Shown: positions 595-13,540 of the stretch, piece after piece | Position numbering within the stretch: position 1 is the stretch's first letter | Layout: each line of letters begins with the position of its first letter | Source: a virus | DNA length: 24,684 bases | IMG/VR virus record: IMGVR_UViG_3300032242_000600 | Coordinates: 1-24,684 of that record | Strand: one strand, 5' to 3' | The notes under the pieces: generated by a model | The model's database searches: none | Seen by the model: only the letters and a program-made list of their open reading frames with translations | Told to the model about the DNA's origin: nothing | Position numbers and translations under genes: made by a program

Positions 595-1122
595 CTAACC
601 GCCAAATATCTTCTTGAGTTGGTCGTACAGAGCGCGTGCTTCAACTACTGACATCGTATCCAAGATGTTTGCCTTTGCTTCTTGTGGCTTCTTGATAACT
701 TTGAGCGGTCTACCAACTTTATTTTTCTTTTTGGTTTTGCTTGGGCTTGCCAGATTCTTTTGGCGTGCCGCCCTCATCTTCTTTAGCTTGTCTTCTTGAG
801 AGCACTTTGGATACTCATCACCCACCACATAGTTTTTGATAGGAAATGCTTCCTTGTCTTGCGTAATTAGTCCACGCTTTACCAGTTGATTGATACGCGT
901 TGCTACATTTTTGTAGTCAGGTATTGTCTTATTTGCGGCTACATCACGCGCAGCACAACCGGGGTTATCCCTAATAAACCGCCAAATAATTTCAGTTTGG
1001 TTAGTAGTATCTTCTTCGACTGTAACCTCAACAGTTGCATTTATGTCGTCATCAAATTTGAGTTCGTTAAGTTTCATTTTGGGTAAAACCTTTCTAAAAA
1101 TTTCAGTTTGTAAGTCAGCCAT
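595..1122 (-). CDS. winged-helix DNA-binding protein with AT-hook-like motif
   Basis: A 175-aa protein. Residues about 41-92 (TEIIWRFIRDNPGCAARDVA, then RINQLVKRGLI) have the helix-turn-helix plus wing pattern of small MarR/PadR-like winged-helix domains. Residues 128-145 are strongly basic and contain KVGRPLK around residue 135; GRP is the core of AT-hook minor-groove binders. The last 25 residues form another helix. SD GGAGAAG lies five bases before the ATG at 1122, and the upstream stop abuts the start. A second ATG at residue 16 is possible but less well placed. Inference: a phage transcriptional regulator or nucleoid-associated factor. The family is not identified. Confidence 0.75.
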   Translation of the reverse strand: MADLQTEIFRKVLPKMKLNELKFDDDINATVEVTVEEDTTNQTEIIWRFIRDNPGCAARDVAANKTIPDYKNVATRINQLVKRGLITQDKEAFPIKNYVVGDEYPKCSQEDKLKKMRAARQKNLASPSKTKKKNKVGRPLKVIKKPQEAKANILDTMSVVEARALYDQLKKIFGG

Positions 1123-9435: not shown

Positions 9436-9516
9436 GAGCGTTCCTTTGATTGGTGTGGCAATTGTGTGTATGTAAATACACGGGTGAAATAGACGAGCGT
9501 CTATATGGGTGTGGCA

Positions 9517-9536
9517 GATGTATGTATACATACATC
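9517..9536. repeat. 20-bp perfect palindrome
   Basis: GATGTATGTA followed directly by TACATACATC. It lies within the second GTGTGGC repeat copy. A symmetric site of this length fits a homodimer binding site. Confidence 0.7.
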
Positions 9537-9550
9537 AAACCTTGTGGTAC

Positions 9551-9571
9551 ACTTCTGCCATAGGCAGAAGT
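9551..9571. other. 9-bp hairpin
   Basis: Arms ACTTCTGCC and GGCAGAAGT with a three-base loop (ATA). No T-run on either side, so terminator function is unlikely. It sits just before the third GTGTGGC copy. Confidence 0.5.
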
Positions 9572-9598
9572 AGGTGTGGCGATTGTGTGTATATCGAT

Positions 9599-9620
9599 AC
9601 TGTATTTGCATACAGTTTTT
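9599..9620 (+). terminator. weak terminator-like hairpin
   Basis: Arms ACTGTAT (9599-9605) and ATACAGT (9610-9616), loop TTGC, followed by a short T-run. The stem is AT-rich and therefore weak. No plus-strand gene lies upstream, so it may simply be part of the palindromic repeat system. Confidence 0.3.
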
Positions 9621-9640
9621 GCTGAGTTGAAAATTGACCA

Positions 9641-9912
9641 ACAAATTCAAACCCAATAGGCATGCGGGTTGCGAGAGAATTTGTGAATTTGCGGTGTTTT
9701 CCAGAGGGTCAGACGGGTTACGCGATTATGTGAATGTGTGTATGTCATACACACCTCTGCGCATGTATCCAATACATACACTCTCTATATCTTTCTGACC
9801 CTTAATATATATAACAAATTCACAAATTCACAAATTACCCCTTGGCAACCCGCATGAAATCGACATTCTTGAATTTGCTGATGAATTTGCTACTTTTGGA
9901 CACAACAAATTC
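9641..9912. repeat. iteron-like GAATTTG/CAAATTC cluster
   Basis: Copies of the 7-mer occur at 9642, 9677, 9685, 9815, 9823, 9871, 9883 and 9906, with a near copy at 9831. Three 8-bp units (ACAAATTC, ACAAATTC, ACAAATTA) are in perfect tandem at 9814-9837, next to the AT-rich run TTAATATATATAAC. Initiator-binding iterons beside an AT-rich unwinding element look like this, so a replication origin is the leading idea. Confidence 0.5.
9736..9754. repeat. 19-bp palindrome
   Basis: Arms GTGTGTATG (9736-9744) and CATACACAC (9746-9754) around one central T. It matches the GTRTGTAT half of the dispersed repeat but lacks the GTGTGGC box. A smaller related palindrome (ATGTAT, CCA, ATACAT) follows at 9763-9777. 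Confidence 0.6.
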
Positions 9913-10135
9913 AAAGGTGTGGCACATGTATGTATACACACGCACTAGGTTTATGTGTGTCGCGGCGATCTTTGGATATGCGCTTGTCGCGTTTGGACGC
10001 AGATGCCCAACGCTTGTATGGTGTTCGGTTCGGCTCAGGGGGCAAGCCCCCTTGAACCTTCCGATTGTTTTCGCCGTCACGAAGTTTCGGCATTGGGGCG
10101 ATTGATACGCCCCGTGGCAAGGTGTGAACCCGCAT
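9911..10135 (-). CDS. possible small basic protein
   Basis: A 74-aa reading frame (MRVHTLPRGVSIAPMPKLRD...) with a strongly basic middle (RWASASKRDKRISKDRRD). Its ATG overlaps the stop of the 143-aa gene by one base (TAATG), a pattern used repeatedly in this genome. Against it: no good SD, and the last ten residues are encoded by a copy of the GTGTGGC repeat. If real, a basic DNA- or RNA-binding role would be possible. If not, the gap 9436-10134 is wholly non-coding. Confidence 0.4.
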   Translation of the reverse strand: MRVHTLPRGVSIAPMPKLRDGENNRKVQGGLPPEPNRTPYKRWASASKRDKRISKDRRDTHKPSACVYIHVPHL

Positions 10136-10566
10136 TAAGCATCAACTGTGTCAGACTTAGCAGACTCAGCGATACGCTCGACCAAGCCATACAAGAATGC
10201 GTTCTGACCTTTGAGGACAAAAGACTTACCTGCTTGCTCTGCTTTCATGCGCTTAACTTGCACAGACTTTTCGACATACTCACACAGTTGCATGAGGTTA
10301 GCCTTAGGCACTGGACCAGTTGGAGGAATGAATGCTTGAGCAACTTCACCCACGGCTTTCGGTAACAAAGACGATGACAAGATGTCATTGACGATAGGGC
10401 GGTATGTGCCATTTGACAACTGGTTTACATAGATCATGCTTGAGAGATTCAAGCGTGACTGACGATCTGCAAAAGCAATAGCCTTAGCAAAAGAACCAGT
10501 TTTGCCAGTCTTGGTAGACATGACGACAGACTGCTCACCGTTAAACAATGCGATAGCATTAGACAT
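10135..10566 (-). CDS. hypothetical phage protein (143 aa)
   Basis: A 143-aa, mildly basic protein. The N-terminal half is mixed (MSNAIALFNGEQSVVMSTKT, then FADRQSRLNLSSMIYVNQLS). After a PPTGPVPK turn at about residue 82, the C-terminal half is helical (LMQLCEYVEKSVQVKRMKAE). SD AAGGGG is seven bases before the ATG. It is the first gene of the leftward module and sits between the two repeat regions, so an early regulatory or origin-binding role would fit, but no DNA-binding motif is visible. Confidence 0.8.
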   Translation of the reverse strand: MSNAIALFNGEQSVVMSTKTGKTGSFAKAIAFADRQSRLNLSSMIYVNQLSNGTYRPIVNDILSSSLLPKAVGEVAQAFIPPTGPVPKANLMQLCEYVEKSVQVKRMKAEQAGKSFVLKGQNAFLYGLVERIAESAKSDTVDA

Positions 10567-10688
10567 AAAAATCCCCTTGAGTTAGGTTTCAAAGTAAATA
10601 CTGCACCATGCAATACCTACTTAAAAACCCACCGCCACACTTTGCCGAGCGTGTTTAGGCCATGTCACGATTACATGAGTTAGGCCAT

Positions 10689-10921
10689 GCGGTAGGGTTT
10701 ACCGCTCGCTTGCTTCACCCAAAGCGAGAAAAAGTTAGGCCCATAGTATTACAAAGTAATACCGACACCCGAAAATAAATTGTTAAAAATCGATACGATC
10801 ACGAAAAGAACACCATGCGACCCATACATGAATGCGATAGAGTTACCCATGCAATGCGATATACGGACACAATGAACAATCGTTGCCATAAGGCGTGACG
10901 CTGAGAATGCGATGATTCTCA
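10689..10921. repeat. series of four short hairpins
   Basis: Stems: GCGGTA/TACCGC (10689-10705), CTCGCTT/AAGCGAG (10705-10728), GTATTAC/GTAATAC with an AAA loop (10746-10762), and TGAGAAT/ATTCTCA (10902-10921). The first two abut, sharing one base. Arms of 6-7 bp suit dimeric operators as well as RNA structure. Confidence 0.5.
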
Positions 10922-10986
10922 CTATGAGGTGGGCAAGTAGGTTTTAACTAATCGACCAGTCTCACTATTAGGTGGCAGGGTAGGTT
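10917..10986 (+). repeat. imperfect direct repeat TCTCACTATKAGGTGG
   Basis: Copy one starts at 10917 and copy two at 10960. Both read TCTCACTAT, then G or T, AGGTGG, a variable GCA-containing part, and end in GTAGGTT. The distance of 43 bases is about four helical turns, which would place bound proteins on the same face of the DNA. Confidence 0.55.
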
Positions 10987-10987
10987 C

Positions 10988-11011
10988 GGGCGGCAGGGGG
11001 TGGAGGGAGGG
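10988..11011 (+). other. G-quadruplex-like G-run
   Basis: Four runs of three or more G (10988-10990, 10996-11000, 11005-11007, 11009-11011) are separated by loops of 5, 4 and 1 bases. This satisfies the usual G3+N1-7 rule on the plus strand. It is followed by a GC-rich stretch (GGCGGGCCCCGCGCC). Confidence 0.5.
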
Positions 11012-11075
11012 ACACGGACAAGGCGGGCCCCGCGCCTGTTTACGTATGGCGCACATAACAAGGTCAATTTTTTAG

Positions 11076-11099
11076 GAACATACATACATTCGCCACACG
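11076..11099 (-). repeat. fifth GTGTGGC repeat copy, reverse orientation
   Basis: The minus strand reads CGTGTGGC, GA, then ATGTATGTATG, matching the four copies at 9452-9945. It lies about 63 bases upstream of the GNAT gene start with its GTGTGGC box towards that gene, mirroring the arrangement on the other side of the control region. Confidence 0.65.
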
Positions 11100-11161: not shown

Positions 11162-11590
11162 ATGGCGTATAAAATCCAGAGAGCAAATTTAGGTTGCCTA
11201 GACGCGCAGCTGGCATTAACTCGACTCCAAAAACAGTGTTTACCCTATGACAAACCTTTTTCAACGATGGTGGGTTACTGGTGGATTGCCTACTCTGAAA
11301 GTGGTGTACCAGTTGGTTTTGCTGGTGTCGTTCCTTCTCAGCGCTGGAGTGATTGCATGTATTTGTGCCGCGCAGGTGTGCTATCTAGTCATCGTGGACA
11401 AGGACTGCAGAAACGATTTATTAGGGCCCGTATTAAGTTGGCTAAAGAAAAACATATGAATTGGCTTGTAACGGACACCAACGACAACCCAGCGTCAGCC
11501 AACTCCCTAATATCTTGTGGATTTAAAATGTTTGATCCAACTATTCCGTGGGCAGCCAAGGGTGCGTTGTACTGGCGCATGAAACTTTAA
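11162..11590 (+). CDS. GNAT-family N-acetyltransferase
   Basis: A 142-aa protein of normal GNAT length. Motif A is clear: CRAGVLSSHRGQGLQKRFIR with RGQGL at 78-82, the acetyl-CoA pyrophosphate loop. Motif B follows with DTNDNPASANSLISCGFKMF (105-124), where N114 and the SCGF turn are typical. The N-terminal acceptor part is aromatic (GYWWIAYSESGVPVGFAGVV). Substrate unknown: phage GNATs may modify proteins, aminoglycosides or nucleotides. No good SD precedes ATG 11162 (only GCGGGC). It is the first rightward gene after the divergent region, so early expression is plausible. Confidence 0.85.
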   Translation: MAYKIQRANLGCLDAQLALTRLQKQCLPYDKPFSTMVGYWWIAYSESGVPVGFAGVVPSQRWSDCMYLCRAGVLSSHRGQGLQKRFIRARIKLAKEKHMNWLVTDTNDNPASANSLISCGFKMFDPTIPWAAKGALYWRMKL

Positions 11591-11646
11591 TGGATCATAT
11601 ATAGACCGTTAAGCCACTTAATGACACATTAATAGATCATATATGC
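11587..11646 (+). repeat. 17-bp direct repeat at GNAT end and HNH start
   Basis: TTAATGGATCATATATA at 11587-11603 and TTAATAGATCATATATG at 11630-11646 differ at two positions and are 43 bases apart. The first contains the GNAT stop codon, the second the HNH start codon. The GATC core is AT-flanked. It may mark insertion or duplication around the HNH gene, or be a regulatory site. Confidence 0.5.
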
Positions 11647-12032
11647 CCTATAAAGACCCAGACAAACGTAAAGCCGCATCTGCAAAAGGGTCTGCAACCT
11701 ATTATGAAAAAAACAAAGAAGCTGTAAAAGCAAGAACCAAGAAAAAGAGAAAGCAACAAAATGCAGAATGGCGGGCCTTTAAAGCAACGCTAAGTTGTAG
11801 CCAGTGCGGGTTTAGCCACCCAGCGGCTATGGACTTTCACCATACAAACAAAGACGACAAAGAAGGCGGAGTGCACGAATTTGCCCGTATGCGTAACTAC
11901 AAAAAAGCCTACGAAGAAATAAAAAAATGTATCGTATTATGCGCAAATTGCCACAGAATTGTTCATTATACTGACCATTATCAAAAGAAAGCCGCCAAAA
12001 AAGCCAAGAAAAACGGGGCCGAAGCCCCGTGA
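11643..12032 (+). CDS. HNH endonuclease-like protein
   Basis: A 129-aa protein. The N-terminal 45 residues are very basic (RTKKKRKQQN) and probably contact DNA. The HNH part runs from about 50 to 108: zinc pair C52-x2-C55 (CSQCG), catalytic-type DFHH at 64-67, second zinc pair C100-x2-C103 followed by H104 (CANCHRIVH). This matches the small phage HNH proteins. In several phages an HNH protein next to terminase helps packaging; in others it is a homing enzyme. No SD is visible before ATG 11643. The last codons form the left arm and loop of a strong hairpin, so the gene end and the terminator of the convergent gene overlap. Confidence 0.85.
   Translation: MPYKDPDKRKAASAKGSATYYEKNKEAVKARTKKKRKQQNAEWRAFKATLSCSQCGFSHPAAMDFHHTNKDDKEGGVHEFARMRNYKKAYEEIKKCIVLCANCHRIVHYTDHYQKKAAKKAKKNGAEAP
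12004..12030 (-). terminator. intrinsic terminator for the acidic gene
   Basis: Arms ACGGGGC (12013-12019) and GCCCCGT (12024-12030). On the minus strand the loop is TTCG, a very stable tetraloop, and the stem is followed by a T-run (CCGTTTTTCTT). It lies just past the end of the convergent acidic gene and inside the end of the HNH gene. Confidence 0.8.
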
Positions 12033-12527: not shown

Positions 12528-12640
12528 ACGCTTGTGCAGTTGTCAAACCGGCGTAATGGGGACGAAGAACTTGGTTATTTTCCGGTTTTCTTACCAAGGT
12601 TCAACGAAATGGCAGGCGAGCTTCTTACCCGTTACTGCAC

Positions 12641-12668
12641 TTGACACACCATTTTTTGGCGTTAACAT
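12641..12668 (+). promoter_or_regulatory. sigma70-like promoter for late small genes
   Basis: Perfect -35 TTGACA (12641-12646), 16-base spacer, -10 TAACAT (12663-12668; four of six). It ends about 30 bases before the start codon at 12699. The same spacing occurs in the promoter at 17605-17632. Confidence 0.6.
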
Positions 12669-12698
12669 ACACACGTCATTAACCAACAGGAGTTTTCT

Positions 12699-13200: not shown

Positions 13201-13400
13201 TTGGCTACATTCAAAAACAAATCGACGCTAGCGAAAAACTGTTCGAGATGATGCGAGCTGATCATAAAGAACGGATGACGCAAGTGTTGGTTTGGGCCGA
13301 CATGAACGAGAGCCTACTTCGCAAATTAGAAGAACGTGACCGTGAGATTGAGCGTTTGCAAGGTCTTTTAAAAGCGCACGAAACTGCGGAGAAGCTGTGA
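13197..13400 (+). CDS. 67-aa coiled-coil protein, GTG start
   Basis: The frame starts with GTG at 13197, overlapping the previous stop by four bases (GTGA). The product MIGYIQKQIDASEKLFEMMR and onward is almost entirely helical with a coiled-coil end (RKLEERDREIERLQGLLKAH). GTG start is chosen because no ATG is near the beginning and GAAGAA upstream may serve as SD. It may act as an oligomerising partner of a virion or packaging protein. No family recognised. Confidence 0.65.
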   Translation: MIGYIQKQIDASEKLFEMMRADHKERMTQVLVWADMNESLLRKLEERDREIERLQGLLKAHETAEKL

Positions 13401-13540
13401 TGAAACGGTACAACTTTTTCTTACCCGACTCTGTTATAGAAGCTTTACGCCAAGAGGCGCATCGCTCTGGCTTGACCATTTCGGAGATCATTCGAAAAGT
13501 CTTGACGGTCTATACCAATAAGTTGACTGAGAAGAAATGA
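13400..13540 (+). CDS. 46-aa ribbon-helix-helix protein
   Basis: Product MKRYNFFLPDSVIEALRQEA, then HRSGLTISEIIRKVLTVYTN and KLTEKK. This is the CopG/Arc pattern: a short beta strand (residues 2-8), helix A (10-22), a turn at SGLT, helix B (27-41). Such proteins bind DNA as dimers, with the strand in the major groove. It starts in TGATG with the previous gene and shares ATGA with the TerS gene. Its place just upstream of terminase suggests local regulation of late genes, or a packaging-site binding role; this is inference. Confidence 0.75.
   Translation: MKRYNFFLPDSVIEALRQEAHRSGLTISEIIRKVLTVYTNKLTEKK

What the first reader, a model, noticed from the sequence alone, without database searches (positions are those of the whole stretch)
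9452..11099. Five-copy dispersed repeat GTGTGGC-N2-WTGTRTGTAT, mirror-oriented about the control region
Copies at 9452, 9508, 9573 and 9916 (plus) and at 11076-11099 (minus). In both arms the GTGTGGC box faces the outward genes. A shared, oriented element flanking a divergent region suggests a specific binding protein, phage promoter type or origin element. I do not recognise it from any described system.
Basis: partly seen in the sequence, partly recalled or inferred. Interest (0 to 1): 0.75.

Follow-up and report, generated by a model that had tools for sequence, protein, structure and literature searches.

The report
Operator sites of a phage repressor
The repeated DNA motif is real and is most likely the landing site of a tiny DNA-binding protein that the phage itself encodes to time its genes; this kind of system is known, but here it appears in a group of phages whose gene control is undescribed as far as we could find.

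Summary
In detail: five exact copies, positions and orientations as stated, 0.17 expected by chance even with 3 mismatches. The motif is conserved in relatives (portal identity 72-99%). Its core is a half-site, ATACAYAC (other strand of the motif), followed 10-11 bp on by a second half, GCCACAC or TACAYAC.

Outside the finding's coordinates, the half-site also covers the -10/+1 region of the sigma70-like late promoter (TTGACA-16-TAACATACACAC, window 12641-12674). A scan of IMG/VR for this composite gave 47 sites: 23 before the late operon, 19 before a PD-(D/E)XK exonuclease gene, 5 elsewhere.

The late operon encodes a 46-aa ribbon-helix-helix (RHH) protein, present in 65 of 67 testable relatives. 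Best reading: the motif is this regulator's operator, and it probably represses the leftward, exonuclease and late operons. Binding and repression are inferred.

Against: 6 of 55 loci with the RHH gene lack an exact half-site (5 of them of one group); co-variation is underpowered. A phage-polymerase promoter is not supported. An origin role remains possible as a side role: four copies flank a giant palindrome, but relatives keep the palindrome without them.

The parts
9453..9471 (+). Motif copy 1, 17 nt before the start codon (9435, minus strand) of the first leftward gene
9509..9527 (+). Motif copy 2; its half-site is part of the palindrome GATGTATGTATACATACATC, 9517-9536
9574..9592 (+). Motif copy 3
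9736..9754 (.). Perfect palindrome of two half-sites, GTGTGTATG-T-CATACACAC, without a GTGTGGC box
9772..9779 (+). Further half-site ATACATAC
9917..9935 (+). Motif copy 4, overlapping an inverted pair of half-sites at 9928 (-) and 9934 (+)
11080..11098 (-). Motif copy 5 = site 1, the copy shared by most relatives, right border of a conserved noncoding block
12641..12668 (+). Sigma70-like late promoter TTGACA-16-TAACAT
12667..12674 (+). Half-site ATACACAC on the -10/+1 region = site 2
13400..13540 (+). 46-aa ribbon-helix-helix protein, proposed binder of the motif
   Evidence: Pfam RHH_1 22.3 bits, cut-off 20.5; model pLDDT 91; best PDB fold match CopG
9593..9916 (.). Giant palindromic AT-rich noncoding region between copies 3 and 4, possible replication origin (inferred)
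   Evidence: z -6.9, 0 of 100 shuffles; counterparts in relatives

Best explanation
The motif is the operator of a phage-encoded DNA-binding regulator, most likely the 46-aa ribbon-helix-helix protein of the late operon. SHOWN by sequence: the half-site ATACAYAC recurs (a) with a second half 10-11 bp on in a conserved block before the late genes, (b) on the -10/+1 region of the late promoter, (c) on the -10/+1 region of the exonuclease promoter in part of the clade, (d) in the window's subclade as four copies plus palindromes before the leftward operon; the RHH gene is present in nearly all relatives that could be tested. INFERRED: RHH dimers bind the half-sites, two side by side and cooperatively on the bipartite motif; cover of the -10/+1 sites blocks host RNA polymerase; the protein, made from the late promoter, also represses its own operon; the left array does the same to the leftward operon. 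One small protein would thus set the timing of several operons.
For: Terminase-fetched relatives: RHH gene in 65 of 67 loci with at least 700 bp upstream; of 55 distinct loci with at least 300 bp before the RHH frame, 46 have site 1, 43 site 2, 49 any half-site. IMG/VR scan for TTGACN-N15/16-TAACATACACAC: 47 sites, 23 with the RHH gene downstream, 19 at the exonuclease gene (18 by reading frame, 1 by identical promoter), 5 neither. Half-site within 150 bp upstream of sixteen other gene families: 3 of 448. TAMCATACAYAC in 17 of 33 records, reversed control 0 of 33; in 13 of 16 records with RHH E<1e-15 and 4 of the other 17. A more distant exonuclease group keeps a TTGACA...TACCAT promoter without the half-site, so the two are separable. 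RHH: Pfam cut-off passed, R3 and N5 of the predicted DNA-contact strand invariant in 32 aligned rows, CopG and Arc among fold matches. Bipartite site with one helical turn between halves fits two adjacent RHH dimers (general knowledge). Four more distant records have a site-1-like place before an RHH gene. Works like SvtR, an archaeal-virus RHH protein that represses its own gene and a late structural gene from an upstream site (PMC5569661, passages).
Against: No binding data. 6 of 55 loci have the RHH gene but no exact half-site: L275 has only about 490 bp, L080 and L077 only 482 and 918 bp upstream, but L295, L297, L298 are long enough; their block is conserved and reads TTGTGTATATTAGCCACAA instead. 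RHH proteins with the same KRYNFY strand (L078, L082) have site 1 but no site 2. Co-variation of RHH residue 2 with the second half-site rests on 2 independent pairs, p 0.5; residue 7 with operator base 9 on 3, p 0.5, and the IRHNFF group contradicts the latter. In the protein-fetched exonuclease set only 14 of 61 distinct upstream stretches carry the half-site. 4 records with weak or no RHH match carry the composite (3 are fragments of 36-41 kb). No promoter was recognised at the left array. Counts are not corrected for relatedness. RHH proteins can also activate (AmrZ, PMC3325190, passages).
Confidence: 0.6

Rival explanations
1. The motif is an operator, but of another phage or host regulator; the RHH protein is unrelated to it.
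For: Conserved RHH with lost or changed sites in the L297 group. Another candidate exists: window 595-1122 resembles MarR-type regulators (E 1e-5).
Against: The RHH gene lies in the operon whose promoter bears site 2, and site-bearing records are mostly those with a strong RHH match. The MarR-like match was seen in PHROGs only; Pfam gave no such family for it.
Confidence: 0.2
2. The array is part of a replication origin: iteron-like initiator sites around a giant palindrome.
For: Four same-way copies flank 9593-9916, a palindrome that folds far better than shuffles, with counterparts in relatives; T-A skew maximum near it in 5 of 5 long relatives, G-C skew minimum within about 3 kb in 3 of 5.
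Against: Relatives with the palindrome have no array there (L050, L083, L044: no exact half-site in the 4.2 kb left of site 1 other than site 1 itself or one overlapping it). Copy 5 and the promoter sites lie 1.2 kb and more away. Skew is confounded by the switch of gene direction.
Confidence: 0.1
3. The motif is a promoter of a phage-encoded or phage-modified RNA polymerase.
For: The element is oriented with the outward genes and its half-site lies at a fixed place on promoters.
Against: No polymerase found (control empty); the half-site lies on sigma70-like promoters at the exonuclease gene and, in many relatives, at the late operon, while the bipartite copies lack such boxes.
Confidence: 0.05
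4. The copies act as RNA: hairpins followed by GCCACAC in the leader of the leftward transcript.
For: The leader folds better than shuffles, z -5.1; in L101 copy 1 another inverted repeat stands before GCCACAC (by eye).
Against: Copy 5 has no hairpin before it; promoter-borne half-sites lie at or before the transcription start.
Confidence: 0.05

Closest known systems
Arc and Mnt repressors of phage P22
   Same: Small phage RHH proteins; Arc is among the fold matches and weak sequence matches; operators with paired half-sites (recalled)
   Different: Other operator sequence; here the gene is within the late operon, and sites lie on late and exonuclease promoters
SvtR of archaeal virus SIRV1
   Same: RHH protein that represses its own gene and a late structural gene, with an upstream site and spreading proposed (PMC5569661, passages)
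   Different: Archaeal virus, other consensus, different promoter machinery
CopG plasmid copy-number repressor
   Same: Best fold match, probability 1.00, E 0.023
   Different: Plasmid control; no operator comparison made
HMO-2011-type and RHph_TM phages
   Same: Portal 25-28% (HMO-2011 type) and about 40% (RHph_TM), capsid up to 43% identity; similar gene set in relatives
   Different: RHH profile found nothing in the parts of four such isolates that were read (RHph_TM3_14A, HMO-2011, HTVC115P, phiM6)

Membership tests
Ribbon-helix-helix proteins (the 46-aa protein) | Sequence match to the RHH family | tested here: met
   Pfam RHH_1 E 1.2e-4, 22.3 bits over cut-off 20.5
Ribbon-helix-helix proteins (the 46-aa protein) | N-terminal strand, then two helices | tested here: met
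   Helices 10-23 and 27-45 at pLDDT 91; no strand is assigned in the lone chain, expected only in the dimer; CopG, Arc, NikR among matches, none with E<=0.001
Ribbon-helix-helix proteins (the 46-aa protein) | Dimer that inserts the strands in the major groove | not testable with these tools
   Single-chain prediction only
RHH repressor-operator system | Repeated operator near own promoter | tested here: met
   Site 2 on the promoter of the operon with the RHH gene: 43 of 55 distinct loci; site 1: 46 of 55
RHH repressor-operator system | Protein binds the operator and represses | not testable with these tools
   Needs bench work; co-variation underpowered
Phage RNA polymerase promoter | Phage encodes the polymerase | tested here: inconclusive
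   0 of 10 records for PF00940, control empty; N4-type signature absent in 5 giant proteins
Iteron-type origin | Repeats belong to the origin region in relatives too | tested here: not met
   Palindrome kept without the array in other subclades

The most novel reading that the evidence does not exclude
One 46-aa RHH protein couples replication and transcription: in the window's subclade its sites have been recruited around a giant conserved palindrome that is the phage's replication origin, so the same protein gates origin firing and the leftward, exonuclease and late operons.
Probability: 0.17. Interest if true: 0.7.

Novelty: new member of a known kind. Interest (0 to 1): 0.45.

Why it matters
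For these phages, met here in metagenomes only, my searches of the open paper library found no described gene-control system (listings only). A defined protein, a defined site and a short list of target promoters make their gene timing testable with purified parts and reporter plasmids, without a cultured phage. The half-site on promoters of unrelated operons, and around a possible origin, shows how one small regulator can take over several control points.

Tried and rejected
Phage-polymerase promoter: see rivals. Packaging site (cos/pac) for the late block: suggested by its G-rich tract and by three loci that start 75-84 bp before the motif (L010, L024, L026); a sequencing gap at the G tract explains that as well; not pursued.

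RHH residue 7 tracking operator base 9: a lead, contradicted by the IRHNFF group. Residue 2 with the second half-site: suggestive only. The automatic site picker took site 2 in part of the loci, so the labels were set by hand.

Host by genome scan with the portal: 7 pattern hits, none a relative. Whole window against named phages: no near match. RHH protein against named phages: only two records of one Gordonia phage, E 0.3, in one of them annotated Arc-like repressor. Papers: 'HMO-2011' with 'promoter' 4 listed; RHH with late promoter terms none; 'HMO-2011-type' with 'freshwater' 2 listed; broader RHH terms 30 found, 10 listed and 3; sRNA name none. Only PMC5569661 and PMC3325190 were opened, for passages.

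The exonuclease count of 14 of 17 is biased, since most of those loci came in by the promoter pattern; one search gives 14 of 61. In one search the start taken from the alignment is too far downstream in many rows, so distances there are approximate. (23 of 31 records with the motif at up to 2 mismatches, reversed control 2 of 31) includes records fetched by the motif itself.

Full report
The observation. GTGTGGC-N2-WTGTRTGTAT has five exact copies at 9453, 9509, 9574, 9917 (+) and 11080 (-); 100 shuffles give 0.17 matches at up to 3 mismatches. The window is a whole virus record of 24,684 bases, classed linear and perhaps a fragment. Rightward genes include terminase, portal and capsid; leftward ones an ATPase and an HNH-like gene. 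Named relatives are RHph_TM Rhizobium phages (portal about 40%, capsid 43%) and the HMO-2011 type (portal 25-28%).

Relatives. The best 80 loci were fetched by portal, 80 by exonuclease, 80 by terminase, and 23 stretches by the exact motif. Of those 23, 18 belong to this phage group; L090, L092, L093, L096 and L104 show no shared context with it. Most relatives have one copy, before the rightward operon; the four-copy left array was seen in the window, L006 and L084 only, with L101 partial: two exact left copies, one with GTGTGGC alone, the fourth missing.

The unit. Read on the other strand the motif is ATACAYAC followed by GCCACAC; in other groups the second half is TACAYAC or similar, at 10-11 bp. 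In the left array the first half is often part of an inverted pair. At copy 1 the pair keeps its symmetry in L084 with changed letters, which suits a symmetric protein, though a hairpin too.

A second fixed place. In many relatives the half-site also completes the -10 box of the late promoter and runs into its start region, TTGAC...TAMC-ATACACAC; some (L009, L014, L010, L095, L073) have no clear TTGAC. From site 1 to site 2 it is 47 bp (L033) to 1,641 bp (L084); in the window 1,587 bp, with a GNAT gene, an HNH gene and an sRNA between. In long relatives more half-sites lie in short gaps before other genes. Scanning IMG/VR for TTGACN-N15/16-TAACATACACAC gave 46 stretches with 47 sites: 23 with the RHH gene within 3.2 kb downstream; 19 at the PD-(D/E)XK exonuclease (16 by reading frame, L135 and L144 through the same contigs, one of the two L149 sites by identical promoter sequence); 5 neither (L136, L148, L156, L157, L161). 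In the exonuclease set fetched by protein, 14 of 61 distinct upstream stretches carry the half-site; a more distant group has TTGACA...TACCAT without it.

The proposed binder. Between the late promoter and the next long gene (13537) lies a 46-aa frame, too short for my ORF list at 60 aa. It passes the Pfam RHH_1 cut-off; AlphaFold pLDDT 91, pTM 0.64; Foldseek's first matches are CopG and StnY, Arc from rank 9, E 0.02-0.1, none at 0.001 or better. The sequence profile search of the PDB puts designed helical proteins first and RHH proteins (9kkd, NikA, AvtR, Mnt, Arc, CopG) at E 0.0016-0.43. Of the 80 terminase loci 67 have at least 700 bp upstream; 65 of these have the RHH gene, L015 and L286 (773 and 1,008 bp) do not. 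Of 55 distinct loci with at least 300 bp before it, 46 have site 1, 43 site 2, 49 any half-site. The six without are L275, which is short, and five with KRYNFY-type proteins: L077 and L080 (short upstream), L295, L297, L298. In the last three the block is conserved but reads TTGTGTATATTAGCCACAA.

Controls. Half-site within 150 bp upstream of sixteen other gene families: 3 of 448 distinct stretches; two further families 2 of 12 and 3 of 17; the RHH gene itself, in mid-operon, 0 of 47. TAMCATACAYAC: 17 of 33 records, reversed 0 of 33; 13 of 16 records with RHH E<1e-15 (absent in G024, G032, G034), 4 of the other 17. In G037, G038, G040 and G042 a half-site in a site-1-like place lies before an RHH gene; in the first three TAACATACACAC also lies before ribosome-binding sites of other genes; G040 14603 and G042 9642 show no gene behind them. 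Counts are not corrected for relatedness.

Co-variation. On a tree of 44 loci, RHH residue 2 against second half-site gives 2 independent pairs, residue 7 against operator base 9 gives 3; none goes the other way, p 0.5 in both, so nothing is shown.

The palindrome. 9593-9916 as single-stranded DNA: z -6.9. In a rough scan (250-nt windows, 12 mononucleotide shuffles) 12 of 13 loci have their strongest window at 1,225-1,600 bp left of site 1, L095 weakly (z -3.2); L022 has it at 725 bp. L050 z -11.8, L082 z -4.8. A core like AGGGTCAGACGGGTT recurs in several. T-A skew maximum near it in 5 of 5 long relatives, G-C skew minimum within about 3 kb in 3 of 5 (G024, G020, G014) and not in G005 and G021; gene direction switches there too. 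That it is an origin is inference.

Mechanism. RHH dimers on half-sites, two per bipartite motif, would cover the start regions of the late and exonuclease promoters. Made from the late promoter, the protein would hold down these operons and its own; the left array would act on the leftward operon, where I could not recognise a promoter. Repression is inferred from the overlap with -10/+1. SvtR works this way (PMC5569661, passages); AmrZ both activates and represses (PMC3325190, passages).

Verdict. A real, conserved element, best read as the operator of a phage RHH regulator: a new member of a known kind. The link from protein to site is the weak step.

Noticed in passing
window 12532-12638 (+); L022 7142-7247; L034 3334-3439: Rfam Atu_At1 (RF02496), described as a Rhizobiales sRNA, above the gathering score in 3 of 5 sources searched, just before the late promoter.
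   Followed up: no
window 9593-9916; counterparts in L050, L082 and others: Giant concentric AT-rich palindrome with repeated GAATTTG-like or GAATATTC-like units and a recurring AGGGTCAGACGGGTT-like core; possible replication origin.
   Followed up: partly
window about 10950-11098 and counterparts: Conserved noncoding block left of copy 5: G-rich tract that could form a quadruplex, GGGACACGG, a GC run that flips between G and C, TTTACSTATYGC, ACAAGG, T run, motif.
   Followed up: partly
L028, L030, L057 and others, about 150-200 bp left of site 1: GTTAAAGAGC, the reverse complement of an rRNA-type boxA (recalled), in the leftward leader of several relatives; not in the window (by eye).
   Followed up: no
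window 11162-11590 and 11643-12032 (+): GNAT acetyltransferase and HNH endonuclease genes between site 1 and the late promoter; several relatives lack such an insert.
   Followed up: no
L082 and L078, left edge of the palindrome: Strong sigma70-like promoter (TTGACA or TTGACT-17-TATACT) with a hairpin at its start, reading towards the palindrome (by eye).
   Followed up: no
L109 863-10144 (-) and counterparts in other long relatives: Giant 2,500-3,100-aa late proteins; the C-terminus of the one scanned matches DarB-like antirestriction families, the rest nothing firm.
   Followed up: no
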